Origin: Oscillatoriaceae cyanobacterium M7585_C2015_266
GTDB lineage: Bacteria; Cyanobacteriota; Cyanobacteriia; Cyanobacteriales; Oscillatoriaceae
DNA: 64,000 nt
Assembly (NCBI GenBank): GCA_015295835.1
Contig: DVEG01000026.1
Span: 62,001 to 126,000, forward strand
Direction of reading: 5' to 3'
Shown: piece after piece, positions 37,754 to 58,016 of the stretch
How the letters are laid out: every line of letters begins with the position of its first letter
How positions within the stretch are numbered: the first letter of the stretch is position 1
Program-made: the position numbers and the translations under genes
The notes under the pieces: generated by a model
Database searches by the model: none
What the model was told of the DNA's origin: nothing
What the model saw: the letters and a program-made list of their open reading frames with translations, nothing else

Positions 37754-40700
37754 TTAATAATTGCAAACTTGCAATTTTTTCTTTTCTTGTGGATGGGCGA
37801 TAAAATAATCTTGTAACCAAGCACAACCTCTTGTAAGTAATTCTTCTAATCCTCCTCCTATTTGCCCGATTTTCCATATGCGAGCGGTGCCGTCTGCTGA
37901 GGCGCTAACGAGTAAGTCGCCAGTGGGATTAAAACTAACGCTCCATACCCACTCATCAGAGCCTTTAAATTGTGCGAGTTCGTTACCTGCTAAATCCCAA
38001 ACTCGCGCGGTTCCATCTCCGGAAGCGCTGGCTATGCGCTCGCCTTTTGGGGAAAAACTGACGTCAAATACTGCTCCCTGATGCCCTTTAAATTCTGCTA
38101 GTTGTTTTCCTGATAAATCCCACAGTCTTACTGTGCCGTCTTCTGCAGATGTTGCGATCGCATTTCCCTGGGGGCTGAAACTAGCGCTCCATACACTCCC
38201 CTGATGCCCTTTTAATACTGCTAATTCTTTCCCCGATAAATCCCACAGTCGCGCTGTGCCATCATATGAAGTAGTGACAATTTTATCTCCTTTGGGGCTA
38301 AAACTGACGTCAACTACCATATTCTGATGCCCTTTGAATTCTGTTAATACTTTTCCCAATAAATCCCACAATCGTGCTGTGCCGTCTTCGGAAGCGGTTG
38401 CTATTTTATCTCCTTTTGGGCTGAAACTGACGCCGATTACCCAACCTTTATGCCCCTTGAATTCTGCAATTTGTTTTCCTTTTAAATCCCAAAGCCTTGC
38501 TGTTTTATCGGCAGAAGCTGTTACTATGCGATCGCTTTTAGGGCTAAAACTAATACTTCTCACCCAGCCTTGATGCCCTCTGAATTGTACGAGTTGTTTA
38601 CCCGACAAATCCCATAGTCGTGCCGTGCCGTCATAAGAAGCGGTTGCTATTTTATCTCCTTTTGGGCTAAAACTGACGCTCAATACTAAATTTGAATGCC
38701 CTGTCAATGTTGCAACTTCTTGCCCATACAAATCCCAAATTCGTGCAGTGCCATCTGCTGAGGCGGTGGCGAGAGTTTTGCCATTAGGGCTAAAACTAAT
38801 ACTGCCGACGCTGCCGTGATGCCCGGTGAATATTGCTAGCAAGTTTCCTGATAAATCCCACAGTCGAGCTGTGCTATCGAGTGCAGCGGTTGCAATATGG
38901 TTATTTTTCGGGCTAAAATTAACTGCAATTACGCCTGCTTTATGCCCTTTTAATGTTGCTATCCGCTTTCCGGATAATTCCCATATTGCTGCTGTGCCGT
39001 CTGTAGAGGCAGTAGCAAGATATTTGTTATCGGGGCTAAAACTGACGCTCCATACCCAGCCTTGATGCCCTTTAAATTGCGCTCGCTCTTTTCCGGATAA
39101 ATCCCATAATCGTGCTGTTTCATCTGCAGATGCTGTTGCTATTTTATCTCCTTTTGGGCTGAAGGCGATACCGATTACTTTTTCTGTATGCCCTTTTAAT
39201 TCTTTTCGTAATTTCCCTGAGCTCTCCCATATTCTGGCTATACGATCATCACAAGCTGTGGCAAGTAGTTTTCCGTCGGGGCTAAAATTTACACTTCCGA
39301 CGCTTGCTGGATGTTGAAATTTTGCTAATTCTTTTCCGGATAAATCCCACATTCGCGCTGTTTTATCAGCACTTCCTGTGGCAATGCGATCGCTTTCTGG
39401 GCTGAATGCTACACTCCAGATAGTATCCTGATGCCCACTAATTTTTCCGATTTCTCTACCGGATAAATCCCACAGTCTTACTGTGCCGTCATATGATGCT
39501 GTTGCTATTTTATCTCCTTTTGGGCTGAAAGATACACTTGTCAGCCCGCTTTCGTGCCCATTTAATTGATTTCTTTCTCGAATCGAATTCAGGATTACTC
39601 GCAATGCTTTTTGAGGACTATTTGTCTGATATTTCGCACCTTCTGGCATTAGTTTTTGCCAAGATTCTCCTGCCTGTATTGCTTCTTTTAATGCTTCTAT
39701 TTGTTTAAAACCAGCTTCAAATTCTCGCAAAGCATTAGCAGCTAATTGTTCTATTTTTGTTGCTTGCTTTGCAGCTTTAAATTGTCTGTTTGCTTGCGCT
39801 GCTATAGTGGCAGCAAATGCTGCTATTCCTAAACATACTGTTAGAATTGCATAGCCGGCGCGAATCGTTAGTTTAGCTTTCTGTTGTGCTTGAGATAAGG
39901 TATAATTTGCTTCTGCTAATATAAGTGATGCTTCTTTTTCTGCTGAGAGCTCTATTTGTAAATCTCGTTTTGCTAATTCTTGGCTGGCTGCTAAAAATTG
40001 ATAGTCGTCATCGCTTAAACTTTTTACTGCTGCCCAAGCCTGTGCTTTTTGTAATTCTTGCCCGCGTAATAAGCAGGATTCGTCGCAGCGGTTGGAATTT
40101 AACCATTTGGCGATCGCTTCCGCATATGGGCGTATTGTTGCTAATGCTTCTTCTACCCAATCAGAATTAAAAACTTCCTGATAAATGCGGTTGTAAACTT
40201 TTAATTTTCCTTCTTGTTTTACTACTAATCCTGAAAGTCTTAATTCTATTTGCTCCGGGCTATTGTCTGCAGGAATTTCTCCCTTTTGTAATATTTCTTT
40301 ATATAATCCTAATAATCTACCTGAGCTTTGTTCATTTCTCAATAGGCGATCGCGAATTGTTTTGAGATGCTCTGGTTCATCCTGTGTCTGCCAATTCTCT
40401 ATTATACATGTTTTTACCAACTCGGCAATATTGGGATTCCTGCTCCTAGCCTTTTCTACCACCAATTTGCATAATTTTTGCGTCAAAAACGGTTGCCCAC
40501 CTGTCCATTGTAAAATTTCAGTTAAAATTTCTTCTGGTTTATCTACGATTTCAGCCAATCCTGCTGTTAAAGATAACTTAGCTTCTTCCAATTTAAACCC
40601 ATTTAATTCTATGGAGCGCCCAATATTAAACGGTGTTCGTTTTAAATCCGACATTAAATCACTGGGAGCAGCTACTCCCAACAAGCAAAACGTCAGGCGT

Positions 40701-41215
40701 TTGTAGTCGGGATTTTCTGCCCTCCGGTTATAACAAGCGCGAATAAACGCAAAAAAGTCATCTTTAAAGGGAAGTTTTATAATACTGTCTATTTCATCTA
40801 GAAAAATTACCAAATTTTCGGGAAATTCTGGTAGCAGCACTGTATCGATAAATTCGCCTAAGCGATTCAGGGGTGAAACTGATGCCCGCTCACGCCACCA
40901 ATTTTTAAAATCTACTTTTCTAATCAGGCTGAATCCCCGTAACAATTCAGAAACGATACCGCCATACCACTCTTCAGCGCTGACGTGGCTGCCGATGCGA
41001 GTTAAATCGATAGATGCACATTTCAGCCCTTCATTTCTCAGTTTTTTAATTGTTTGTACCCGTAAGCTAGATTTTCCCATTTGGCGGGAATTCAAAACGT
41101 AGCAAAATTCGCCATTTTTTAATCCTTCGTAAAGTTCGTAATCTGCTTGACGAGTTACATAGGTAGGGTGTTGGTATTCTAGACTTCCCCCTACTTGATA
41201 TTGGTAATTTCGCAT
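37754..41215 (-). CDS. AAA-like ATPase with membrane helix and 14 WD40 repeats (cassette 1, second gene)
   Basis: About 1,153 residues. The N-terminal AAA-like domain has Walker [15 protein letters not shown] near residue 48 and Walker B NLVIFLDEIDSI, followed by [14 protein letters not shown] and a winged-helix-like region. A linker with a predicted membrane helix (AGYAILTVCLGIAAFAATIAA, about residues 450-475) leads to exactly 14 WD40 repeats of about 41 residues ([13 protein letters not shown]...ARLWDLSG), enough for two seven-bladed propellers. The tail ends RGCAWLQDYFIAHPQ. The frame opens at a TTG (41236) that overlaps the preceding stop; ATG 41215 is preferred, with GAGGAG upstream. 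It is probably cotranslated with its ATPase partner. Known relatives are described only as AAA-like domain proteins. Confidence 0.85.
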   Translation of the reverse strand: MRNYQYQVGGSLEYQHPTYVTRQADYELYEGLKNGEFCYVLNSRQMGKSSLRVQTIKKLRNEGLKCASIDLTRIGSHVSAEEWYGGIVSELLRGFSLIRKVDFKNWWRERASVSPLNRLGEFIDTVLLPEFPENLVIFLDEIDSIIKLPFKDDFFAFIRACYNRRAENPDYKRLTFCLLGVAAPSDLMSDLKRTPFNIGRSIELNGFKLEEAKLSLTAGLAEIVDKPEEILTEILQWTGGQPFLTQKLCKLVVEKARSRNPNIAELVKTCIIENWQTQDEPEHLKTIRDRLLRNEQSSGRLLGLYKEILQKGEIPADNSPEQIELRLSGLVVKQEGKLKVYNRIYQEVFNSDWVEEALATIRPYAEAIAKWLNSNRCDESCLLRGQELQKAQAWAAVKSLSDDDYQFLAASQELAKRDLQIELSAEKEASLILAEANYTLSQAQQKAKLTIRAGYAILTVCLGIAAFAATIAAQANRQFKAAKQATKIEQLAANALREFEAGFKQIEALKEAIQAGESWQKLMPEGAKYQTNSPQKALRVILNSIRERNQLNGHESGLTSVSFSPKGDKIATASYDGTVRLWDLSGREIGKISGHQDTIWSVAFSPESDRIATGSADKTARMWDLSGKELAKFQHPASVGSVNFSPDGKLLATACDDRIARIWESSGKLRKELKGHTEKVIGIAFSPKGDKIATASADETARLWDLSGKERAQFKGHQGWVWSVSFSPDNKYLATASTDGTAAIWELSGKRIATLKGHKAGVIAVNFSPKNNHIATAALDSTARLWDLSGNLLAIFTGHHGSVGSISFSPNGKTLATASADGTARIWDLYGQEVATLTGHSNLVLSVSFSPKGDKIATASYDGTARLWDLSGKQLVQFRGHQGWVRSISFSPKSDRIVTASADKTARLWDLKGKQIAEFKGHKGWVIGVSFSPKGDKIATASEDGTARLWDLLGKVLTEFKGHQNMVVDVSFSPKGDKIVTTSYDGTARLWDLSGKELAVLKGHQGSVWSASFSPQGNAIATSAEDGTVRLWDLSGKQLAEFKGHQGAVFDVSFSPKGERIASASGDGTARVWDLAGNELAQFKGSDEWVWSVSFNPTGDLLVSASADGTARIWKIGQIGGGLEELLTRGCAWLQDYFIAHPQEKKKLQVCNY
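37855..39575 (-). repeat. Tandem 123-bp WD40-coding repeats (14 units), cassette 1
   Basis: Each unit encodes GH...[26 protein letters not shown]. The period is 41 codons with little length variation, and many units share long identical DNA segments, consistent with recent duplication or gene conversion. Confidence 0.9.
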
Positions 41216-41232
41216 AAATTGTAATTGACTCC

Positions 41233-42585
41233 TCAACTTTCTTGCCCTAAGCGAGCGCGAAAATATTGTCGATATAATTCACATCTTGGAATACAGCGAT
41301 CGCCTTGACGCTTAATCAAACCCATGCTATATAATTTATAGGCTATCATTGTTTCTATTCGCACTGGCTCTTTTGTACTCACTATTTCTTTTAAAGCAGC
41401 TTCTAATTGGGGATGTTTTTTCAAAGTTTCCAAATGACGACGCAAATGATCCCCGTAAATTCCTGCATCTGTCGGTGCATCTCGCAGTAATTCTTCTAAC
41501 GTCACATCCCGACGGGCAAGGTGATAGAGTGCCAGCCGCACTAAATAGGGGTGCCCTCCCACCATTTCCATGATAGCAGAAACTAAATTATGCCGTTTTT
41601 TATCCGATTCGCACTCTAATTTATGCCGACATGCTAAATTTTCCACTTGCTCTTGAGTAAATTCGCTCAATTCCACCCGTAAGCCAACATTAAAGGGGGA
41701 TTGATTTATATCTAATTTAACATATTCTTCTGTAGAATAGGCTACTACAATTCGCAGTTGTTCCCAGATTTCTACAGTTTTAGCTTCCTCATGCCAACTG
41801 CGGAGCATAGGTAGAAATTCTTTAGCGATTTCAGGATATTGAAAAACGCGATCGAGTTCGTCAAGCGCTAAAACAAAGGGAGCATTAAGTTTTTCTAGCA
41901 GGTGGGCTTCAAAATATGTCGTACAACTAACAATACTACCTCGGTTTTCATCCCAATAATCATCTAAGTGTGAAGCTAATTTTAATTTTTGGGTAACATA
42001 GGAACAGAACCAGCGCAAAAATTTATCGAGGGTACTAAAGACAGCTTTTTCGGCTTGCAGCAGGTTCAGGCGCACAGCGCGATCGCCTTGTTTTTTGCGG
42101 GCGGCAAGAATGCGATTTAATAGAGAAGTTTTGCCCATTTGTTTTGGGGCTTTAATACAAATTAGAGCTCCTGGGAAAGCGAGCGCGTCATAACAATCTG
42201 CTTCTGCTGGGTTGCGCTCCACATAAAATGGAGAATTCAGCGACACAGGACCTTCTGGAAATTCTAACCTTACTTCCGACTGCGGAATTATTTTATTATC
42301 ACTGACAATATTTTTGCTGACTCGCCATTTCCGCTCTAACGCCGTGCGAAAGTTAGTTTTGCTCACTTCTTCAGAAAGAGCTTTCGACAGCAAATTCCAG
42401 AAATTGGGGCCAGCCGTTCTCTGCAGATAACTTGCCGTCCGATTCACGGAGGCAGCCATTTCTTCATAAGTCTGATTTTCCCAGGCTGCTTGCAAAATCT
42501 TGATTTCCAAATCGCTCAGGTGCCTGCCTTTGAGAGCAAAAACTGCCTCATCCGCTGTGTTAAGTGCTTGTTCAAAACTTATCAT
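41233..42585 (-). CDS. HTH + AAA-like ATPase (cassette 1, first gene)
   Basis: The 450-residue protein has three parts. Residues 1-85 form an HTH-like domain (LSDLEIKILQAAWENQTYEEMA, then [18 protein letters not shown]) like that found at the N-terminus of vWA-MoxR-associated and related cyanobacterial signalling ATPases. An AAA-like ATPase has Walker [15 protein letters not shown] and Walker B PFVLALDELDRVF, then [19 protein letters not shown]-terminal winged-helix-like end reads AYKLYSMGLIKRQGD...YRQYFRARLG. It contains no effector domain. The downstream AAA-WD40 gene starts at or within 20 bp of the stop, so the two products probably work together. Confidence 0.82.
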   Translation of the reverse strand: MISFEQALNTADEAVFALKGRHLSDLEIKILQAAWENQTYEEMAASVNRTASYLQRTAGPNFWNLLSKALSEEVSKTNFRTALERKWRVSKNIVSDNKIIPQSEVRLEFPEGPVSLNSPFYVERNPAEADCYDALAFPGALICIKAPKQMGKTSLLNRILAARKKQGDRAVRLNLLQAEKAVFSTLDKFLRWFCSYVTQKLKLASHLDDYWDENRGSIVSCTTYFEAHLLEKLNAPFVLALDELDRVFQYPEIAKEFLPMLRSWHEEAKTVEIWEQLRIVVAYSTEEYVKLDINQSPFNVGLRVELSEFTQEQVENLACRHKLECESDKKRHNLVSAIMEMVGGHPYLVRLALYHLARRDVTLEELLRDAPTDAGIYGDHLRRHLETLKKHPQLEAALKEIVSTKEPVRIETMIAYKLYSMGLIKRQGDRCIPRCELYRQYFRARLGQES

Positions 42586-43094
42586 ATCACATAAGTTATT
42601 AAACTTAAGTTAATTATCCCCTTTAGGGGGCTAGAGATATTGATACAGCTTAAAGTTATAGAAAGATGGTATAACCCATAGCTGCAACCATTTTTTATCC
42701 CGATAATACCAGGTTCATTCGTCACTTGTATTGCTAACGACTGTTAGCACCTATAGTAAGGATGTAATATCATAGTATTAAAAAGTATTTTTGTCAAGTA
42801 TTTGTATGCCAATTGTAAAAAATCGCCTCAGCAGTCATATCGACGCCGCCGGCTCTAAGAGCGATTAAGGGTTAGAGACGCAGAAAGTCGCACAGAAATT
42901 TCAAAAATTTTCTGATTTTCCGCTGGTGCAGTAGAATAACTGTCTGTTATTGTCATATTTTCCTTGATAGGGGATTGCAAAATATACATATAGGCGACAC
43001 TACTGAAAGAGAGCCTCTAATTTTCCTGCGAGTAAGGTTATGACATGATGCGAGTGCGCTACCAACTTTTTACACAATTCACTATCTGGAGGGT
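42586..43094. promoter_or_regulatory. Divergent intergenic region between cassette 1 and the 120-aa gene
   Basis: 509 bp without a gene. It includes a perfect hairpin GCTAAC-GACT-GTTAGC near 42734-42749 and a second small one, AATAAC/GTTATT, near 42940. It presumably contains the promoters of both flanking genes; no clear operator match is known to me. Confidence 0.45.
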
Positions 43095-43097
43095 GTG

Positions 43098-43457
43098 ATG
43101 TTCTACTTAATCTTGCATGATCAAAATAATATGAAAAACATTTTCCCAGAAGGGGTGCCGACGTTTAGCTCAGTGCCTGATGACTTTATCGAAACTTATA
43201 ACGAATTTGGAGAATTAGATAATATTCAACCGGCGTTTCGCGTCAATATGGAAGGCTTAACCGAGCAGCAGGAGCTAAAACTATTCAACCTATACGCATC
43301 TGAAATGGATGATCCAAGTTATGTCAAAGGGTGTTTTCGACTATTGCAAAAAGGCTGGATAAGAATTCCAGCGGATGAGGTAAAAGCGGTTGTATGGCGC
43401 GAAGGAGAAAAAGTTGTTTTACTACCTTACGAAAAAGATACAGCACTAGCTTATTAG
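43098..43457 (+). CDS. Hypothetical 120-aa protein between the two ATPase/WD40 cassettes
   Basis: The 119-120-residue acidic soluble protein starts MFYLILHDQNNMKNIFPEG and ends with VVWREGEKVVLLPYEKD. GGAGG lies just before the ATG at 43098; an overlapping GTG at 43095 is less likely. There are no signal peptide, membrane helix or cysteine clusters, and I do not recognise the family. It is the only gene on the opposite strand between two paralogous minus-strand cassettes. It could be a separate cargo gene or a regulator or effector of the cassettes; position is the only evidence. Confidence 0.65.
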   Translation: MFYLILHDQNNMKNIFPEGVPTFSSVPDDFIETYNEFGELDNIQPAFRVNMEGLTEQQELKLFNLYASEMDDPSYVKGCFRLLQKGWIRIPADEVKAVVWREGEKVVLLPYEKDTALAY

Positions 43458-43509
43458 AGTGTGTAGTGTAGAGTGGGGGGAGAGGCAGAAACTTTCTTAC
43501 TCTACAATT

Positions 43510-46500
43510 CTACTGGCAAAATCCCAATTTTTCTCGTGCTTGAGGATGATTAGCTAAATAATCCTGCAACCATTCACACCCTTTAGAAAGTAATTCGTCT
43601 AAACTTCTACCCAAGCGCCCCACTTGCCATAGGCGCGCTGTATTGTCGGAAGAAGCGGTAGCCAGTATATTACCTTCGGGGTTAAAATTGACACTCCAAA
43701 CTGGTGCTTGATGCCCTTTAAATAGGGCAAGTTGATTTCCCTGTAAATCCCACAGCCGCGCTGTGCAGTCTGTAGAGGAAGTGGCTATTAAATCTCCATT
43801 CGGATTAAAACTAACTCCCAAGACTGCGCCTTGATGCCCTTTAAATTCTGTCAGGGAGTTGCCGTATAAATCCCAAAGCCGTGTTGAGCCGTCATCAGAA
43901 GCTGTGACAAGGGTTTTGCTATCTGGGCTAAAACTTAAACTCCAGACTAAACCCTGATGCCCTTGGAATTCTCTAATTAAGTTGCCTTCAATATCCCACA
44001 ATCGGGTAATGCAATCATCTGATGCGGTTGCTATATATTCGCCGTTGGGGCTGAAGGTAATTTTAGAGACTTTGCCTTTTTGTTTTTTTAATTCTCCAAT
44101 TTTATTGCCGTTTAAATCCCAAAGCCAGGCATGGGAGTCGGCGCTGGCGGTGGCAATGCGATCCCCTTTAGGGCTAAAACAGGTACTAATAACCCAGTTG
44201 CTGTGCCCTTTAAATTGAACAAGTTCATTGCCTGATAAATCCCACAATCGCGCTAAAGAATCTTCGCCGCCGGTGAGTAAAAAATTGCCGTCGGGGCTGA
44301 AACTGACGCTATTAACCCAGCCTCGATGGTTTTTCAGTTGCAATAATTCGTTTCCCTGCAAATCCCACAATCGCGCTGTGCCGTCAAATGAACAAGATGC
44401 AACTAGTTTTCCATCAGGGCTGAAACTGACAAAGAGCACCATTGCCTCATGCCCTTTGAATATTGTGATTTGGTTGACGTATAAATTCCACAATCGCGCT
44501 GTGCCGTCGGAAAGTGCTGTGGCGAGGTATTTACCATTACGGCTAAAATTGACACTGACGACGGTGCCTTGATGCCCTCGGAATTCGTCTATTTGCTTTC
44601 CGTTTAAATCCCATAGTCTTGCGGTGCCGTCGCCGGATGCGGTAGCGATTTGATTGCCGTCGGCGTTGAAACAGACGCTCCACACCCAGGCTTGATGCCC
44701 CCAAAATTGAGCAAGTTGTTTGCCGTTTAAATCCCACAGGCGGGCAGTGCTGTCTACGGATGCGGTAGCGAGTGCATCGCCTTTGGGGTTGAAACAGACG
44801 TTTAATATCCAGCTTTTGTGTTCTTTTATTTCTAAAATAATGTTTCCGAATAAATCCCAGATTTTGGCAGTATTGTCTTCACCACCTGTTGCGATTGCAT
44901 TTCCCTGGGGGCTAAAACTTACGCTTAATACTCGCCCCTGATGCCCTCGCATTTCAGCTATTTGTTTCCCTGACAAATCCCACACTCTTGCTGTTGTATC
45001 TTCTGATGCTGTGGCTATTTTATCTCCTTTTGGGCTGAAACAAACGCTACTTACCCAAGCCTTGTGCCCGATAAATTCTGTAATTAGTTTTCCTGATAAA
45101 TCCCACAGTCGTGCTGTGCTGTCTTCTGATGCTGTTGCGAGATATTTCCCGTCGGGGCTGAAACAAATGCAACGTACTTTTCCTTTATGCCCGATAAATT
45201 CTGTAATTAGTTTTCCTGATAAATCCCACAGTCTTGCTGTGCCGTCTTCTGATGCTGTTGCGAGATATTTGCTGTCGGGGCTGAAACAAACGCTATTCAC
45301 TGCGCCTCGATGCCCGGTAAATTGATTTTTTTCTCGTATTTTTTCGAGTATCACTTGTAGGGCTATTAGTGGGCTGGTGGCGGTATAATCTTCTATCGAT
45401 GTGTTATTTTTTTGCCAATTTTTTAATGCTATCCCTGCTTCCATTGCTAAAAGTAGGGCTTGGATTTCTCTCCCTTCTACTTCAAACATTCGTAGTGCTT
45501 GTACGCCTGCTCTTTCTATTTTTGTTCCTTCTTTTGCTGCTTCTAGTAGTTTTTCTGCTTTTTGTTTGGCTTCTGCTAAAATTTTTTTGGCTTGTCTTTC
45601 TGCTTCTAAATCTTTCTGTATTTGTTCCCAAGCTGCTTGTTGGCTGGCTGCTAGAAAATCGTCGTCTTCTACGCTGAGACTTTTGCCGACTTTCCAAAGC
45701 AATGCTTCTTGTAGGGCTTGCCCTCGCAACAGACGCGATGAATCTTGACGGTTAGAAGCTAACCAGGCTGCGATCGCTTGACTGTAGGGTCTCATATTTG
45801 CTAATGTTTTTTCTACCCATTTTTTATTAAATATTTCTTCATAAATCCGATTGTATACTTTTAATTTCCCCTGATTATTCACTACTAAAACAGAAAGCCG
45901 TAATTGCATTTGCTCGTTACTGTTATCGGCTGAGATTTCTCCAAATTGCAAAATTTGCTGATAAATTCCCAACAATCGACTTGCTTGCTGTTCGTTGCTT
46001 AACAAGCGATCGCGAATTGTTTTCAAATGTTCCGGCTCATCATTTGCTTCCCAATTTTCTATTATATACTTTTTTACTACCTCCCCCACGTTCGGATAGT
46101 AATTATTTTCTTTATCTACTACTAACTTACACAGCTTTTGAGTTAAAAATGGCTGCCCCCCTGTCCAACTTAATATTTCTTTTAAAACCCTTTCAGGATT
46201 TTTAAATTTTTCCAATCCCTTAAGTAAAGATAGTTTAGCTTCCTCAAATTTAAAACCGCTTAACTCAATAGCATAACCTATATTAAAAGGTGTGCGCCTT
46301 TTATCAGCGATTAAATCCCCCGGCGTAGCTACTCCTAAAAGACAAAAAGTCAGGCGCTGGTAGTCAGGATTACTTGCTCGCTGGTTGTAACAAGCCCTAA
46401 TAAATGCAAAAAAATCATCTGTAGGAAAATTTAAACTCAAAACGCTATCAATTTCATCGATAAAAATAACAATTTTTTGGCAAATTTGCCCCAGCAAAAC

Positions 46501-46869
46501 TGTTTCAATAAATTCCCGAAACCGCCGCAAAGGGGAAAGCCAGTTGCGCTCGCGCCACCACCTCCCCAAATCCACCTTTAAATCAAAATCAAACGTCAAA
46601 CTTCGCAACATATTAGCATACCACTGTTCGGCAGTTACCTGTTGAATATCATCCATAGAAATATCAATTGCCGAACAAGCAATTCCTTCTTCTTTAAGGC
46701 GCCGCATTACCTGCACCCGCAAGCTAGACTTTCCTGACTGACGAGAATTTAAAACATAACAAAACTTTCCCGCTTTCAGCCCTTGATAAAGTTCTTCATC
46801 TGCCTGACGACGTACATAACTGCGGGCATTTTCCGGCAGAGTACCCGAAAATACATAATCTTCCATCAT
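43510..46869 (-). CDS. AAA-like ATPase with 14 WD40 repeats, no membrane helix (cassette 2, second gene)
   Basis: The 1,119-residue paralogue of the 37754-41215 product. Walker A is [14 protein letters not shown], Walker [14 protein letters not shown], followed by [14 protein letters not shown]. The linker is a charged Lys/Ala/Glu-rich coiled-coil-like stretch ([19 protein letters not shown]) in place of the membrane helix seen in cassette 1. Fourteen WD40 repeats follow from about residue 516, then the shared tail [16 protein letters not shown]. The ATG overlaps the stop of the preceding gene in ATGA, indicating translational coupling. It is likely cytosolic, unlike the cassette 1 protein (inference). 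Confidence 0.87.
43615..45330 (-). repeat. Tandem 123-bp WD40-coding repeats (14 units), cassette 2
   Basis: The same 41-codon unit as in cassette 1. The two 5'-most units (starting near 45188 and 45065 on the plus strand, exactly 123 bp apart) are almost identical in DNA. Confidence 0.9.
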
Positions 46870-48263
46870 TCACCTAATCTTTCGGCAAAATATAATCGAT
46901 ATAAATCGTAACGAGGTGTTACCTCATTATCATGTAGTTGCACCAAACCCATGCTATATAATTTAAAAGCTTGATCTGAAGAAATTTTTACAGGTTTGTT
47001 AGCGAGAACGACTTGTCGAAATACCGCCGCTAATTGTGGGTGCTGCTGGAGATTCCATAAGTGCTGACGCAAGTGATCACTAAAAGGACCTGCTTCTGTG
47101 GGAGAGATTTGCAAAAGTTCCTCCAGGGTGATATTTTGACGTTCTAAGTAATCTAGTGCCCTGCGTACGAGATAGGGGTGACCCCCAATCACAGATGCCA
47201 ATTGTTCAACTTGTTTATTTGTTAATTCTAAACCGTGACGACGTGCAAAATCTTGCACTTGTTTTGGGGTAAAATCAGGAAGGGAAACAATTGTACCCAC
47301 ATTGGCGAGGGGGGAGTGATTGATATCGAGAGAGCTATAAACTTCGGTAGAATGCACCACGACTAAGCGGAGTCGTTTCCAAATTTCGCCTCGCCATCCG
47401 CTGTGTCTTGCCATATCGTACCAAGCGCGCAGCAAGCGACAAAAATCTCCGGCGATCGCTTGGTGTTCAAATACCCAATCGACTTTATCTAAAGCTAATA
47501 CCAAAGGGCTACTGCATTCAGCAAGTAAGTATTTTTCAAAATAGACCGTAGTATTATTATTACAGCCGAATATATCGTCCCAATAGTCTGCTAATCTATT
47601 AGGCAATCCCAGGAGTTGACCGACACTAGCACAAAACCACTGTAAAAATTTTCGCAAGTCTGTAAAGACTGTGCTATCTGCTAGTTCTAAACTCAAAGTA
47701 GCAGTATAATAATCTTGTTTTCTGGCGCGCTCAACAATGCGAGCGAGCAATGAAGTTTTACCCATTTGCTGAGGGGCTTTGATACGAATTAACGCCCCCG
47801 GCTGTAATATCGCTTTATAGCAATCTAATTCGATTGGCGGGCGCTCAATATAATAGGGAGAATTGAGCGGCACTGGGCTATCTGGCAACTTAACTTCTTT
47901 AGACTCCAGTTCTTTAACAAGGCGCGATTCACCTCTAAATCGTTTTACCTCGTGCCAACGCCTTTCCAATGTTGTGCGCAAGTTTGTTTTACTGACTTCT
48001 TCCCCCAACGCTTCGTAAAGCAACCGCCACAGTTTCGGACCTGCAGTTCGTTGCAAATAATTTGCAGTATACTTAGTAGATACTGCCATCTGTTCATAAG
48101 TCTGATTTTGCCATGTTCCCCGAAGAATAACCATCTCTACATCGGTTAGATGTCTTGCTGTCTTGGCATATACTGCTTCATCTGCTACTTGGAGGGCTTC
48201 TTCTAGATTTATGCTTTTTTCTTGCATAGAGTCTATTTCAGAGGCTGGCGGAAGATTGCACAT
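46866..48263 (-). CDS. HTH + AAA-like ATPase with altered Walker B (cassette 2, first gene)
   Basis: The 465-residue paralogue of the 41233-42585 product. The HTH-like part reads [22 protein letters not shown]...[18 protein letters not shown]; Walker [15 protein letters not shown]; then [19 protein letters not shown] and the winged-helix-like C-terminus ([14 protein letters not shown]). Walker B reads [13 protein letters not shown]: the expected Glu is Lys260 (codon at 47484-47486), which should impair ATP hydrolysis but not necessarily binding. An ATG at 48227 aligns best with the paralogue's start, so the first 12 residues are doubtful. It shares ATGA with the next gene. Confidence 0.83.
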
Positions 48264-49518: not shown

Positions 49519-50871
49519 CTACCGTTTCAAAGTTTCAACCGTCAACACCTGTGGCGGAGTCGCATCTGGAGGATAAACAAAGTCAACTGCCACCAAACGA
49601 CGACTACCAGGTGGCAAATTTAACTGCACTAGCGGCTCTCCTTGCTGCCCCCGCCGTTGTACGAGATGAAAATAGCGAGTTCGGGGTATTCCCCAATCAT
49701 CGTTATAGCTAATGCGAACCGTACCGCGAAAGAAAACCTGCTGAGGCGGAGGAGCGAAAAAGCGCAGCCCTGGTTGAGAAAGCTGATCTTCCTTAATAGG
49801 CGTCTGAATAGCAATAGTAACAGTTTGCGGTTGAGGAGTTGGATTACTTAGAGGCAGAGTAAGATTATATTCGATCGCATAATTACCGTGAGCCTGATAA
49901 GCAGTATCTGGATAGCGAACCAACATCGGCGCACTTTGCACCTGATTAGTGCCCAGAGTGCCCCGCACCAGAGTACTCAAACCATAAGAAAACGCTTCTC
50001 CTGGTTGGGGAATAGTAAGATCGAAACTGCCAGGGCGATCGACCAATTGAGCCTTCCAGACAGAGCCTCGCGCCACCCCTGCAACACGCCCATAAATAAA
50101 ATTGCTAACAGCATCAAGAGGCGTAGGAGTTTTATCGCGTGGCGTTGATAAATCCCCTGTTTCCAGCAACTGCTGCCATTCTTCCAGAGTTGGGGCGCGT
50201 TCAGAGCCATCAGGATTTTGCTTAGCAAACATTGCCAAACTAGCCATATAAACTTTACCATTACTGCGCAACCGCATGATAGTAGAACGCCCATTCAGCG
50301 GTGGCGTCAGCTCACGCACCGGGATAGGAAGATTCATCAACATTTGACTATTTCCCGGCGGAATCAGCAATTGCGCAGGCCATTCTGCTTGCGTCAGCCC
50401 CCGCAGAATATCATTAGTTGCCCGACTCCCTGGGCCAGCATAAACCCTACCATCGGGATTTTCTACCATCGCTGGTAACTCGATAAACGGTGCATCCGGT
50501 TGCGAGAGATAGCTTACTGCCTGCAAAATATCTAATTTCACAGGCACTCTACCTGGATTGTGAACAATCACCCCTAAATAGAGAGTCTGCAAATTTTCTG
50601 GTGGTTCGGCTTTGGCAACGTGGTGAGCGAATAAATCAAATCGTCCGGAAAAAGGAAAATTGAGGTGAGCTGCTGGGAATTTTTTCCCTTCTGGAGGAAA
50701 AGTAGAGAGTAAAATTCCTTCTTTGAGTACCAGTTCTGGGCTGTTGCTGTTAAACATCGGTACTGCGTCGAGTTGCCCCGGTAATGGACGCACTTCCTGA
50801 GGTTTGACGATTTCTTGGGGTGGATTTGGTGTTGCCTGAATAAGAAAAAGAGTTGACAAAAAAGGTAGCAT
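49519..50871 (-). CDS. DUF3370 family protein
   Basis: The 450-residue protein has a short hydrophobic start (LPFLSTLFLIQATPNPPQE), suggesting export, and an all-beta body with conserved-looking segments QEVRPLPGQLDAVPMFNSNSP and TLYLGVIVHNPGRVPVKLD, then GPGSRATNDIL. The end reads PLVQLNLPPGSRRLVAVDFVYPPDATPPQVLTVET. This corresponds to DUF3370, a cyanobacterial family of unknown function, probably periplasmic or on the outer surface. The length is normal and the gene seems intact. Confidence 0.7.
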   Translation of the reverse strand: MLPFLSTLFLIQATPNPPQEIVKPQEVRPLPGQLDAVPMFNSNSPELVLKEGILLSTFPPEGKKFPAAHLNFPFSGRFDLFAHHVAKAEPPENLQTLYLGVIVHNPGRVPVKLDILQAVSYLSQPDAPFIELPAMVENPDGRVYAGPGSRATNDILRGLTQAEWPAQLLIPPGNSQMLMNLPIPVRELTPPLNGRSTIMRLRSNGKVYMASLAMFAKQNPDGSERAPTLEEWQQLLETGDLSTPRDKTPTPLDAVSNFIYGRVAGVARGSVWKAQLVDRPGSFDLTIPQPGEAFSYGLSTLVRGTLGTNQVQSAPMLVRYPDTAYQAHGNYAIEYNLTLPLSNPTPQPQTVTIAIQTPIKEDQLSQPGLRFFAPPPQQVFFRGTVRISYNDDWGIPRTRYFHLVQRRGQQGEPLVQLNLPPGSRRLVAVDFVYPPDATPPQVLTVETLKR

Positions 50872-50940: not shown

Positions 50941-51075
50941 TTACCTCTGGGAAAACCATTTTTGTAATGTCTGTTTTAATTCCTGAAAGGCTGCGTATTC
51001 ACACCTTTTGAAAGACACTTTTACGACTAATTCTTTTAACAATGCAGCCGAGGGCGGATTTACGTAAAACATCAT
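50941..51075 (-). pseudogene. C-terminal remnant of the partner gene of a decayed ATPase system
   Basis: The minus-strand frame from ATGATG at 51070-51075 reads PPSAALLKELVVKVSFKRC, then EYAAFQELKQTLQKWFSQR and stop. This looks like the C-terminus of the same protein family whose N-terminus is at 51183-51410. A coding-like stretch in another frame just upstream (about 51075-51140) indicates a frameshift. No start of its own is likely to be used. Confidence 0.5.
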
Positions 51076-51182
51076 CGATGATTTCCTTCAAATGCCGGTG
51101 CTCTGGTAGCCTAATTTTTATGTTTTGCAATTGCGCGATTTTCCTGTTTTTACCAAGACATTATAAAACTTTGAATTTATTT

Positions 51183-51410
51183 TTAAATATAAGAGTATAA
51201 TGCATAGCGATACTGGCTTTTAAATATGCTTAAAAAATTACTAGCTTCTTGATAAACTCCCGGAGCTCTATAAGGATGTGAATAGACATCAAGTTCTTTC
51301 TTGCTGACAAGCTGGCGAATCCCTAAAGCTTGATAGAGAACTTCTAGCAAAGTTTCTATTACGGTTTTCTGTTGAAAATCTGCTACTAACACTATTAATT
51401 CTTTTTTCAT
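51183..51410 (-). pseudogene. N-terminal fragment of a cyanobacterial MKKELIVLVAD-type protein
   Basis: 75 codons starting MKKELIVLVADFQQKTVIETLLE and continuing ALGIRQLVSKKELDVYSHPYRAPGVYQEASNF..., then stopping abruptly after KSQYRYAL. As I remember it, the family continues with an acidic LVMFDxEG-type segment and is about 200 residues or more. The segment between GIR and DVY also looks expanded. Both signs point to truncation. Intact relatives tend to sit downstream of AAA ATPases, and an ATPase remnant lies just upstream here. Confidence 0.6.
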
Positions 51411-51429
51411 CCCAATACTCCGGCAGCAT

Positions 51430-51763
51430 AAAGGGTTGTTAGAGTGTAGTAGATTCTACCTCAGGAGCGTTGTGCAACCAGAGGTTTTCGCCTGCGCTCG
51501 CCTGCTTCCCCATTCTCTTGCGATGCCTTTTAGGCACTTTTAACTCAATCGCCAAGGATAACCCCGATGCCGATTGATTAAAAATTAATTGCTCAACCCT
51601 AGTCGCGTGGTTGGATTTTGAAAATTAATGCCACAACATCGAGAAAAGAACTTTTGCCGGAAGCGTTAGGGCCAATTATAACTTGAAACGGCTGTAAATA
51701 CGCCAGCTCTACTTTTCTACTCTTGGCGATTAAAAAAGCTCGAACATCACTGCCCGAGCCAAT
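51430..51763 (-). pseudogene. Fragments of an AAA/SMC-like ATPase gene
   Basis: The frame 51763-51599 reads VRAFLIAKSRKVELAYLQPF followed by QVIIGPNASGKSSFLDVVAL and IFKIQPRD, then stop: an N-terminal strand plus a perfect Walker A of overcoming-lysogenisation/RecF-like ATPases. No start codon precedes it within the open frame. In a second frame (51590-51430) the sequence SLAIELKVPKRHRKRMGKQA and SAGENLWLHN is also coding-like. Most of the ATPase middle is therefore deleted. The order ATPase then partner suggests a former two-gene operon. Confidence 0.6.
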
Positions 51764-51824: not shown

Positions 51825-52130
51825 TTAGTAGCGACGACTTGAGAAGCCCTCATGGCGACGACGACTACCGCCACCGCTGGGACGCTCTTCCCGGGGTTTC
51901 GCCTTGTTCACCTTCATGTCGCGACCCATCCATTCAGCGCCATCAAGCGCTTCAATGGCAGCAATTTCTTCAGCTTCAGTGGACATTTCCACAAAACCAA
52001 AGCCGCGCATGCGCCCGGTTTCACGGTCAACGGGAATTTGCACCCGCTTGACTGTCCCATATTCTGCAAAAACTGCCTTGAGATCGTCTTGGGTGACTTC
52101 GTAAGAAAGATTACCAACGTAAATGGACAT
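51825..52130 (-). CDS. rbp: RRM-type RNA-binding protein (Rbp)
   Basis: The 101-residue protein is one RNA-recognition motif: RNP2 SIYVGNLSYEV at the N-terminus and RNP1 MRGFGFVEM near residue 43, then a short Gly/Arg-rich tail (PSGGGSRRRHEGFSSRRY). Cyanobacterial Rbp proteins of this size bind RNA, are often cold-induced and affect mRNA stability and localisation (known family). The A/T-rich 5' region to the right could be the regulated leader. The glycine tail is shorter than in RbpA-type members. Confidence 0.92.
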   Translation of the reverse strand: MSIYVGNLSYEVTQDDLKAVFAEYGTVKRVQIPVDRETGRMRGFGFVEMSTEAEEIAAIEALDGAEWMGRDMKVNKAKPREERPSGGGSRRRHEGFSSRRY

Positions 52131-55200: not shown

Positions 55201-55992
55201 CTACATCTTTTCCAATCGCTGGCGCAATTTACTACTAATAGCATCAATCACCGTCACCACCACCAACAATACCAGCATCACCGTAGTTGCTTTTGTACGC
55301 TCGAATCCGTCAATATAGGTTTTTAATTGAAAGCCGATGCCGCCAGCGCCGACAACGCCCAACACTGAGGCGGCGCGGATATTGTACTCGAACATATATA
55401 AGGTATATCCCAATCCTAGGGGCAGCACTTGCGGGAAAATGCCATATTGGGCAATCTGTATCCAAGAAGCCCCGCTTACTTGCAAAGCCTCTATCGAACG
55501 CGGATCGACGGCTTCGATCGCTTCTTGATAAAATTTAGCAAGATATCCAATTGTGTAGATTCCCACTGCTAAGGTGCCCGCGGGTGCTCCTAAGCCAATT
55601 ACGGCGACAAAAATTAATCCCAAAACAATCGAAGGCACCGCTCGCACGGCGTTTTGCAGAAAATTCGCAATAAACTGCAACCAACGTGGCGCTAAATTGC
55701 GAGCACTCAAAATGGCGATGGGTAAAGAAAGTACTGCTCCGATAGTTGTTCCCCATATTGACATTTGGATAGTTTCAAATAAAGCTTTTACCGCTACATC
55801 CAAAACTTCCAAATTGGGAGGCCAAAAATCTAATAGGAAGACTTTTAAGTAATGTAATCCATCTTTAAACATTACTTGCTGGATTTTCAGCCCTTGAAAA
55901 GCCCAGGCATATACTAGCAAGACGCATAAAAATATGCCAAAACGACTAAACCAGGGGTAGCGCATCCACCAAATTGCTATTTCTTTTTTCAT
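55201..55992 (-). CDS. phnE: Phosphonate-type ABC transporter permease
   Basis: The 263-residue protein has about six membrane segments and a binding-protein-dependent permease loop, IEALQVSGASWIQIAQYGIFPQVLP (EAA-type motif), that docks with the ATPase. VPSIVLGLIFVAVIGLGAPAGTLAVGIYTIGYLAKFYQEAIE precedes it as in PhnE proteins. It is the last gene of a minus-strand phnD-phnC-phnE unit; the gap after phnC is 23 bp. Phosphonate, phosphite or phosphate-ester uptake is the expected class. Substrate preference cannot be told by eye. Confidence 0.87.
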   Translation of the reverse strand: MKKEIAIWWMRYPWFSRFGIFLCVLLVYAWAFQGLKIQQVMFKDGLHYLKVFLLDFWPPNLEVLDVAVKALFETIQMSIWGTTIGAVLSLPIAILSARNLAPRWLQFIANFLQNAVRAVPSIVLGLIFVAVIGLGAPAGTLAVGIYTIGYLAKFYQEAIEAVDPRSIEALQVSGASWIQIAQYGIFPQVLPLGLGYTLYMFEYNIRAASVLGVVGAGGIGFQLKTYIDGFERTKATTVMLVLLVVVTVIDAISSKLRQRLEKM

Positions 55993-56015
55993 TTTTTACA
56001 AATAGGGTAAAAAAA

Positions 56016-56750
56016 TCAAACAGAAACTTGAGATAATTTAGTAAATTTACTAGGTAAATCTCGACAAGCGCCATCATAAACTAGGCAACCAGCATCGAGG
56101 ATAAGAGCGCGTTCGGCATAAGCGCTGGCAGCTTCCAAATCGTGCAAAACTGTTATAATTGTCATGCCGCGAGCGCGGTGTAGTTGTGCGAAAATTTCCA
56201 TAACTTGCTGGGCAGCCATGACATCCAAGCCGGCAATGGGTTCGTCAGCAAGGAGGATTTGGGGAGATTGGATGAGTGCGCGAGCGATCGCAACTCGCTG
56301 CTGTTGACCGCCGCTAAGTTGAGCAGTTTTTTGATAAGCTTGCTCTTTTAACCCTAATTGTGCTAATAGCTCTAGTGCCATACAGCGATCGCTCTGACTG
56401 AAACCCCATAAAGTTTGCCATGGTGACAGTACCCCCAAACGTCCACACAGCACGTTATCCAGCGCTGAAAGTTGCCGCACTAACCCCCCTCCTTGAAATA
56501 TCAAGCCAATATGGCGGCGAATGTGCGGTAGGGTGCGGGGGGTTAATAGTATGTCATTAATGCGAATTTCTCCAGAGTGCAGTGGTACTAATCCGACGAG
56601 CGCTCGCAGTAACGTAGACTTTCCCGCTCCATTCAGCCCCAGCAGTGCCACAAATTCGCCCTGGCAAATTTTACAATTAATGCCGTTGAGAATGGGGCGA
56701 TTTAGCGTAGTATTGTATGGCGTTTTTAGATTTTTGCATTCAATAGTCAT
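56016..56750 (-). CDS. phnC: Phosphonate-type ABC transporter ATP-binding protein
   Basis: The 244-residue ABC ATPase is complete: Walker A GLNGAGKSTLLRAL near residue 38, Q-loop LIFQGGGLVRQ, signature LSGGQQQRVAIARAL, Walker B ILLADEPIAGLD and the H-loop TVLHDLEAA. It energises uptake together with the adjacent permease and binding protein. The HIP1 and GCGAGCGC octamers are both present in the gene. The ATG is 91 bp after the end of phnD. Confidence 0.9.
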   Translation of the reverse strand: MTIECKNLKTPYNTTLNRPILNGINCKICQGEFVALLGLNGAGKSTLLRALVGLVPLHSGEIRINDILLTPRTLPHIRRHIGLIFQGGGLVRQLSALDNVLCGRLGVLSPWQTLWGFSQSDRCMALELLAQLGLKEQAYQKTAQLSGGQQQRVAIARALIQSPQILLADEPIAGLDVMAAQQVMEIFAQLHRARGMTIITVLHDLEAASAYAERALILDAGCLVYDGACRDLPSKFTKLSQVSV

Positions 56751-56841
56751 GGTGAATGGGGGACTGGGAATTAGGTAGTGAGGGGATGAGTAATCGGTAA
56801 TTGCTAATTATTACCGATTACTTCTTAATATTGATTAGCTT

Positions 56842-57804
56842 TTAAGGCTGGATTCTGGCGCGTTGCATAGCTTGACGCATAGGCGCTAGGTGGCTGTCGT
56901 GATTAACTTTTACCAGGCTGGTTGAATTGTAAAGGGCACGCAGCAGCCCATTATTAGCACTGTCGTTTAATTTCAGGAGCGCGTTAACGATTTTGTCGCG
57001 CATGGCAGCAGGCACATCATCGTCGATGACGATACCGTGTGCTGGTACACCGGGAAATTCTTGTAGCACGCGCAATTGCTCGGCTTCTTGAGCGGTAATC
57101 CAAGGGGGATTAAGGGCGTATTCTGAGACGGCAGCAACATCTGCCTGCCCTCTGAGTACTGCTTGCAGGGCACTGCTATAACCGTCGCCGTAGGTGACTT
57201 GGCTAAAGAAATTCTCTAGGCGATCGGGGCCATCTATTAATCCTGCGCCAACAAATTCACCAATGGGGATGATGAATCCTGAACCTGAGGTGCGGGAGGC
57301 AAATGCTATTCTTTTGCCTTTTAATTGTTGGAGGGTTTGCTTTTTCGAGCCTTGAGGGCGTAGGGGGCTATCTTTGCGTACTACCAGAACGGAATTATAG
57401 GTATGTCCGCCGGAATAATCGGGGCGCACTTCTGCCAAAACTAGCCTAGCTCCGGCTAATTGCTCTGCTTTTAGGGCGGGGCGGCTGCTGAGGAAAGCGA
57501 CATCGGCGCGATTGGCTCTGAGGGCTTCTACTGCTGCGGTTTCATCGGCAACAACGGCATCGACTGGGATTCCTATTTGTTTTGAGAGGAACTGTGCTAC
57601 TGCGTTGGCTTTGTTTTGCAAGTCTACGGAGTCTCGTCTGGTAGGAAATACTATTGTTAAGCGTGTGAGGGTGTTTTGAGCGCTCGCTCTCTGGTGATGA
57701 TCTTGTCTTGGGTTTGAGGTGGCGAGCGCTTCTTGCCGCCCAGACACACTGAGCATTCCACCCAGCAACAGTATTAGGGCACTCGCACTCAGTAATTTAT
57801 GCAT
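56842..57804 (-). CDS. phnD: Phosphonate-type ABC transporter substrate-binding protein
   Basis: From the ATG at 57804 the precursor is about 320 residues with a clean signal peptide (HKLLSASALILLLGGMLSVSG). The body is a PhnD-type family: LTIVFPTRRDSVDLQNKANAVAQ, EALRANRADVAFLSSRPAL, GKRIAFASRTSGSGFIIPIG, QVTYGDGYSSALQAVLRGQADVAAVSEYAL. It is the first gene of the phnD-C-E unit. No Pho-box direct repeats could be recognised in the very AT-rich 212 bp upstream. No phosphonate-degrading or phosphite-oxidising gene (C-P lyase, phnX, ptxD) lies in the window. Confidence 0.87.
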   Translation of the reverse strand: MHKLLSASALILLLGGMLSVSGRQEALATSNPRQDHHQRASAQNTLTRLTIVFPTRRDSVDLQNKANAVAQFLSKQIGIPVDAVVADETAAVEALRANRADVAFLSSRPALKAEQLAGARLVLAEVRPDYSGGHTYNSVLVVRKDSPLRPQGSKKQTLQQLKGKRIAFASRTSGSGFIIPIGEFVGAGLIDGPDRLENFFSQVTYGDGYSSALQAVLRGQADVAAVSEYALNPPWITAQEAEQLRVLQEFPGVPAHGIVIDDDVPAAMRDKIVNALLKLNDSANNGLLRALYNSTSLVKVNHDSHLAPMRQAMQRARIQP

Positions 57805-58016
57805 AACTTTCTCTTGTTCTCGATTAGCGTGTCTCTTCACTAATTTGACAATTTATCTCAATAACGTTATTTTAAATTATTATATTTTGCTAATTTTTTT
57901 CAATAAAAATTTTAAAAAGTATAAAGTGCATAATAAAAATATAAAAATTAATATATAATGCAGGGATAGAAGGGATTGTTTAATATTTCGATTAAGCAAT
58001 TTAAATGTAATGCAAA

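What the first reader, a model, noticed from the sequence alone, without database searches (positions are those of the whole stretch)
50941..51763. Decayed two-gene ATPase/partner system next to the WD40 locus
Four coding-like fragments in order on the minus strand: a RecF/OLD-like ATPase start with perfect Walker A (GPNASGKSSF), a later fragment of probably the same protein, then the N-terminus (MKKELIVLVAD) and C-terminus (LKQTLQKWF) of a second protein. ATPase-plus-partner pairs of this form resemble accessory defence genes. Its decay near an active-looking ATPase locus suggests an accessory region with turnover.
Basis: partly seen in the sequence, partly recalled or inferred. Interest (0 to 1): 0.58.

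Follow-up and report, generated by a model that had tools for sequence, protein, structure and literature searches.

The report
Wreck of a two-gene phage-defence operon
A cyanobacterium carries the broken remains of a two-gene operon, an ATPase plus a small nuclease-like partner, whose intact relatives elsewhere probably defend bacteria against viruses; the remains themselves are an ordinary dead gene pair.

Summary
Window 50953-51697 (minus strand) holds the remains of a two-gene operon. Intact versions occur in other cyanobacteria with all fragments in the same order: an ATPase of about 420 aa, then a partner of about 205 aa, sharing a 4-nt ATGA overlap that the window still keeps. NCBIfam names the intact proteins MAD3 and MAD4 of the methylation-associated defence system (MADS). 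But the window and its closest relatives are not MADS. No other MADS gene tested is in the window, and a tree of 77 intact pairs separates the MADS copies from the free-standing or Hma-linked pairs, where the window's relatives sit. An AlphaFold model of the partner best matches the Toprim nuclease domain of OLD proteins, so the pair probably works like a split OLD nuclease (as PARIS does). The copy here is dead: about 280 ATPase residues are deleted, the frame is broken, and the partner has lost its centre and an invariant Asp. Decay looks recent, and the own genome shows no intact copy. Close relatives lack the pair at this site. The relic is ordinary. The widespread free-standing MAD3-MAD4-like lineage, labelled MADS in databases, is the modestly interesting part.

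The parts
51737..51760 (-). intrinsic-terminator-like hairpin after the RRM gene; marks the upstream edge of the relic
   Evidence: 10-pair stem plus T-run (expected number in shuffles 1.6, 3 found in the region); a 28-nt stretch covering it aligns with the same intergenic space in G004 and G001 (E 0.006 and 0.02)
51623..51697 (-). ATPase (MAD3-like) fragment 1: residues 20-44 with intact Walker A (51673-51644)
   Evidence: 84% identity to Paraprochloron ATPase, 88% to G497; HMM NF047739 E=1.6e-6
51445..51615 (-). ATPase fragment 2: residues 64-134 in another frame, with 14 residues missing inside it
   Evidence: 45% identity over 71 aligned columns, linked E=1e-20
51410..51445 (-). ATPase fragment 3: last 12 residues (TLTTLYAAGVLG); about residues 135-417 are deleted before it
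   Evidence: 9 of 12 identical to the Gomphosphaeria C-terminus, 10 of 12 to G497; stop overlaps the partner start
51407..51410 (-). ATGA stop/start overlap of the two genes
   Evidence: sequence; the same 4-nt overlap in 35 of 78 measurable intact pairs
51183..51410 (-). partner (MAD4-like) fragment 1: residues 1-69, then read-through into a premature stop; invariant Asp47 is Ala
   Evidence: 62% identity over 69 aa to the Gomphosphaeria partner, E=1e-23 in the region; HMM NF047734 E=6.8e-13; 75-aa ORF; D47 invariant in 22 of 22
50953..51057 (-). partner fragment 2: residues 166-200 (C-terminus) in another frame; the centre (about residues 70-165) is deleted or unrecognisable
   Evidence: 59-65% identity over 34 aa; HMM NF047734 model 170-206, E=4.8e-6
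51825..52130 (-). upstream neighbour: RRM RNA-binding protein, intact
   Evidence: Pfam RRM_1 E=3e-22
49519..50871 (-). downstream neighbour: DUF3370 protein, intact
   Evidence: Pfam DUF3370 E=3e-212

Best explanation
The region is the recently decayed remnant of a free-standing two-gene operon encoding an OLD-type ABC ATPase (MAD3 homologue) and a Toprim-fold partner (MAD4 homologue). Shown: homology, gene order, overlap, deletions, frame breaks, loss of an invariant residue, no second copy found in the genome, and pair absent at this site in the seven same-family genomes examined. Inferred for the intact relatives: the ATPase senses infection and holds or licenses the Toprim subunit, which cuts nucleic acid and stops the phage, as in split OLD systems such as PARIS. 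Inferred here: the pair was gained in this lineage between the RRM gene and the DUF3370 gene and then lost by deletions and frame breaks, so it does nothing now.
For: Intact operons in same-order genomes. NCBIfam MAD3 506 and 497 bits (cut-off 420) and MAD4 234 and 253 bits (cut-off 160) on two intact pairs. HMM hits on the window's own fragments. AlphaFold model of the partner (pLDDT 93.4) best matches the OLD C-terminal Toprim region (6nk8 Z 10.7 over 179 residues; other OLD chains Z 9.3-9.9; next unrelated chain 7.9). The ATPase resembles Thermus OLD by sequence (6p74, E=5e-13). Private differences of the window copy still sit mostly at third codon positions (15/15/34; chance P=9e-4), so most divergence predates the decay. 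Same-family genomes: 4 of 7 keep the RRM gene next to DUF3370, and 0 of 7 show any MAD3/MAD4 remnant in the interval.
Against: No experiment shows anti-phage activity of a free-standing pair. Foldseek alone gave no significant structural match (no hit at E<=0.001); the OLD match rests on VIA-align. The own assembly is in 35 contigs and 98.5% complete, so a copy elsewhere could be missed. Gain against repeated loss at this site is not resolved, because the family sample is 7 genomes.
Confidence: 0.9

Rival explanations
1. It is the remnant of a complete MADS system of which only MAD3 and MAD4 pieces survive.
For: NCBIfam labels the intact relatives as MADS equivalogs. Real MADS loci exist in cyanobacteria: Anabaena lutea L080, L089, L032, L033, L168.
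Against: The fragments match free-standing pairs far better than MADS copies: summed fragment bits 245 and 231 for the best free pairs against at most 112 for the 8 MADS pairs. tblastn of MAD2 and MAD5-8 finds nothing in the 64 kb window at E<=1e-5. MAD2 in the own genome reaches 35.7 bits against a cut-off of 720; MAD7 gave no hit, but its control did not ring. The space between the neighbours is 953 nt.
Confidence: 0.04
2. The breaks are assembly or sequencing errors in a living gene pair.
For: The assembly is a draft of 35 contigs, and single frame breaks can be errors.
Against: The pieces have shrunk from about 1.9 kb in relatives to about 0.75 kb, with several separate deletions, about five frame switches and a substituted invariant Asp, inside a 275 kb contig.
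Confidence: 0.02
3. The partner's 75-aa N-terminal ORF, or another short piece, is kept as a working small protein (for example an immunity or regulatory peptide).
For: The ORF keeps 62% identity over 69 aa to Gomphosphaeria and an open frame.
Against: It lacks the centre and C-terminus of the fold, and invariant Asp47 is Ala. No relative of this truncated form was found; its codon pattern is equally explained by recent decay.
Confidence: 0.04

Closest known systems
MAD3-MAD4 of MADS (methylation-associated defence system)
   Same: Same two protein families, same order, 4-nt overlap in many; intact relatives exceed NCBIfam equivalog cut-offs.
   Different: No MAD2 methyltransferase or MAD5-8 next to the window copy or its nearest relatives; separate branch of the tree, split supported at 100.
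TOPRIM-linked OLD-ABC dyads embedded in Hma/BREX-related systems (PMC12839542, passages read); PADLOC HEC-01
   Same: ATPase plus Toprim partner as an add-on module; 7 of 76 non-MADS loci here carry HmaB and/or HmaC neighbours; PADLOC HEC-01A is the best PADLOC ATPase model, 157.8 bits.
   Different: The window copy and its nearest relatives stand between unrelated genes, with no Hma genes; HEC-01B matches the partner only weakly (12 of 22 members at E<=0.01).
PARIS (AriA/AriB), OLD class 4
   Same: ATPase and Toprim encoded by two adjacent genes (PMC10568477 and PMC12796447, passages).
   Different: The partner matches no Pfam family and no AriB model; the ATPase match to the AriA models is at the level of the generic AAA_21 model.
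OLD proteins (class 1, e.g. Thermus scotoductus 6p74, Burkholderia 6nk8)
   Same: ATPase related by sequence (E=5e-13); partner fold like the C-terminal Toprim region (Z up to 10.7).
   Different: One polypeptide in OLD class 1, two here.

Membership tests
MADS | MAD3-type ATPase and MAD4-type partner | tested here: met
   Intact relatives over cut-off; window fragments hit by both HMMs, below cut-off because truncated
MADS | MAD2 DNA methyltransferase and MAD5-8 in the same locus | tested here: not met
   None in the window at E<=1e-5; own genome MAD2 35.7 bits against 720; MAD7 none, but that control did not ring. MAD1 was not searched.
MADS | MAD3/MAD4 sequences inside the MADS branch | tested here: not met
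   Nearest intact relatives L035/L036 fall outside the 10-row branch that holds all 8 MADS pairs; split 100 SH-aLRT (quick tree); fragments rank free pairs first
PARIS | AriB-type Toprim effector | tested here: not met
   No AriB or Pfam match for the partner at E<=1, none among 22 members at E<=0.01 in PADLOC
OLD superfamily, split ATPase + Toprim | OLD-like ATPase | tested here: met
   PDB sequence match 6p74 OLD E=5e-13; Pfam AAA_21/AAA_15 over cut-off
OLD superfamily, split ATPase + Toprim | Toprim-fold partner | tested here: met
   Five OLD entries fill ranks 1 and 3-6 at Z 9.3-10.7; catalytic residues were not superposed; Foldseek alone not significant
OLD superfamily, split ATPase + Toprim | nuclease activity controlled by the ATPase | not testable with these tools
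   needs biochemistry
HEC-01 (PADLOC candidate) | HEC-01A ATPase plus HEC-01B partner | tested here: inconclusive
   HEC-01A best PADLOC hit, HEC-01B weak
Septu/PtuA retron effector | PtuA equivalog ATPase | tested here: not met
   45 bits against a cut-off of 500

The most novel reading that the evidence does not exclude
MAD3-MAD4 is at root an autonomous, horizontally moving two-gene split-OLD defence module found across many bacterial phyla. It was captured into MADS in one lineage and into Hma-type systems separately, and it is gained and lost quickly in cyanobacteria. Database labels that call every copy a MADS component would then be wrong for most of them.
Probability: 0.45. Interest if true: 0.5.

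Novelty: new member of a known kind. Interest (0 to 1): 0.3.

Why it matters
The relic itself only adds one dead copy. What it led to is more useful: proteins that NCBIfam names as MADS parts occur mostly without MADS in the loci examined here, on their own branch, which makes a simple two-gene system worth testing by itself and would correct an over-wide annotation. Broken copies in several cyanobacterial genomes fit the view that such defence modules turn over quickly.

Tried and rejected
DNA search in the own genome gave only the region itself and a 23-nt exact match in contig C23, with no MAD3/MAD4 gene around it among ORFs of 120 aa or more; treated as chance.

DNA hits in G008 (it lies in an ABC transporter gene with a P-loop) and G041 (locus L014 fetched, its ORFs not examined) were not followed as homologues of the pair.

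Pfam gave no family for the partner. Foldseek alone gave no significant structure. The HPD Pfam hit to a partner fragment (E=0.0017, below cut-off) was rejected as chance.

Rooting the ATPase tree with two HEC-01-like ATPases failed because their branches are very long, so the direction of capture between free-standing and MADS forms is not shown.

Frequencies of free-standing against MADS copies are biased, because the query was of the free type and only the best 80 of 114 confirmed loci were kept; they are not prevalence.

The phage collection gave no match and the plasmid collection one, in Piscinibacter (31% identity), so mobility by known plasmids or phages is not supported.

A search for short repeats gave no pair that would mark ends of a mobile element around the relic.

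Papers: the MADS paper (Maestri 2024) is not held and is cited from recall and from a reference list. Searches for MAD3/MAD4, HEC-01 and Hma-embedded returned nothing relevant.

Full report
What is there. Searching 60 related genomes with this DNA gave matches in 5, two of which hold an intact operon: G033 and G023, identified by the genome-contig scan as Gomphosphaeria aponina and Ca. Paraprochloron terpiosi. A third cyanobacterial free pair, in G497, came from the order search.

Fragment map. Against the intact proteins the window keeps ATPase residues 20-44 (51697-51623), 64-134 (51615-51445, with 14 residues missing inside) and the last 12 residues (51445-51410); then the partner residues 1-69 (51410-51198) and 166-200 (51057-50953). 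The intervening ATPase stretch of about 280 residues and the partner's centre are gone. A weak piece (51106-51026) may be partner residues 146-175 (E 0.45). The stop of gene 1 and start of gene 2 still overlap as ATGA. The bases upstream of residue 20 run straight into a terminator-like hairpin of the RRM gene. The whole has shrunk from about 1.9 kb in relatives to about 0.75 kb.

Identity. The intact ATPase scores 506 and 497 bits with NCBIfam MAD3 (cut-off 420) and the partner 234 and 253 with MAD4 (cut-off 160) in two genomes. The same HMMs run on the own genome hit the window fragments. No other MAD4 match was found in the own genome; the two further MAD3 matches there are weak hits inside frames of 1233 and 997 residues, far below the cut-off.

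Fold of the partner. An AlphaFold model from 22 aligned partners has mean pLDDT 93.4 and pTM 0.87. Foldseek alone found nothing at E<=0.001. VIA-align ranked the Burkholderia OLD C-terminal region first (Z 10.7, 179 residues, rmsd 4.4); four further OLD entries scored 9.3-9.9, one Pyrococcus protein of unknown function 10.5, and the next unrelated chain 7.9. Invariant in 22 of 22 partners are, among others, Asp10, Asp47, Asp73, Glu109 and Glu111. These are plausible metal ligands by analogy with Toprim; that step is inference. The window copy has Ala at position 47.

Not MADS. A genome-contig scan with four partners gave 80 loci (best 80 of 114 confirmed). All 80 have a MAD3 match beside MAD4; 6 of 80 also carry MAD2 and MAD5-8. 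With the six cyanobacterial loci fetched by place and two duplicates left out, there are 84 loci: 8 MADS and 76 not. Of those 76, 46 have at least 3 kb and 35 at least 8 kb on both sides. In a tree of 77 of these 84 pairs (7 dropped for length), one branch with support 100 separates all 8 MADS pairs plus L077 and L087 from the other 67. The window fragments score best with Paraprochloron and Gomphosphaeria (245 and 231 bits summed), while the 8 MADS pairs reach at most 112. Seven of the 76 loci (L049, L097, L098, L104, L108, L110, L117) carry members of two neighbour clusters whose tested members match HmaB or HmaC, so the module is also linked to Hma, in line with the TOPRIM-linked OLD-ABC dyads described in PMC12839542 (passages).

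How it probably works. In PARIS the ATPase holds the Toprim subunit and releases it on infection, and the Toprim subunit then cuts tRNAs; that paper lists MADS among systems pairing an OLD-type ATPase with Toprim (PMC12409363, passages). I infer the same logic for intact MAD3-MAD4-like pairs at perhaps 0.6. No activity is expected of the relic.

Age and turnover. At the 174 codons aligned in three copies, differences private to the window fall 15, 15 and 34 on codon positions 1, 2 and 3 (P=9e-4 against one third), similar to the intact Paraprochloron (18, 12, 26) and Gomphosphaeria (24, 14, 30). So most divergence built up under selection and the decay is recent. In the seven same-family genomes (G001-G007), four have the RRM gene beside DUF3370 with a shorter gap and three do not; none shows a remnant in the interval at E<=1. 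Other damaged cyanobacterial copies: a partner split in two frames plus a Walker A Gly-to-Arg change in G087, a split partner in a MADS locus of G369, a second truncated ATPase in Paraprochloron, and a C-terminal partner remnant in G059. Single frame breaks in drafts may be errors. In two samples of 388 genomes each (class and order, each containing the own genome), 9 and 9 matched the MAD4 HMM, 3 and 4 over the cut-off.

Verdict. The broader point, that this module is mostly free-standing in the loci seen here and forms a lineage apart from MADS, is worth a follow-up.

Noticed in passing
window 55201-57840 and L169 2019-4851: A three-gene ABC transporter block (phosphonate-type; phn names are from recall) lies about 3.4 kb upstream of the relic on the same strand; in G497 homologues of the same three genes (61-75% identity) lie directly upstream of the intact pair. 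May be coincidence.
   Followed up: partly
window 37754-48263: Two tandem copies of an AAA_35 gene followed by a WD40-repeat gene of about 1100 aa, a recent-looking duplication of an AAA-WD40 unit.
   Followed up: no
L035 10504-13719: In Paraprochloron the intact pair is followed by a second, truncated ATPase copy and by another ATPase plus a possible partner gene on the opposite strand, i.e. a small cluster of ATPase-partner modules.
   Followed up: partly
L034 8148-10013 and L033 9423-10044: Partners in G087 and G369 are both broken near residues 150-170; real decay, assembly error, or frameshifting was not resolved.
   Followed up: partly
L149, L150, L153 upstream of DUF3370: Where the RRM gene is missing in three same-family genomes, the interval instead holds one or two other ORFs of 203-278 aa that look like Uma2-type proteins (recalled, not searched), so this interval is variable.
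   Followed up: no
L077 and L087: These two pairs sit inside the MADS branch of the tree but show no MAD2 or MAD5-8 in the DNA held; possible free-standing derivatives of MADS or cut loci.
   Followed up: no
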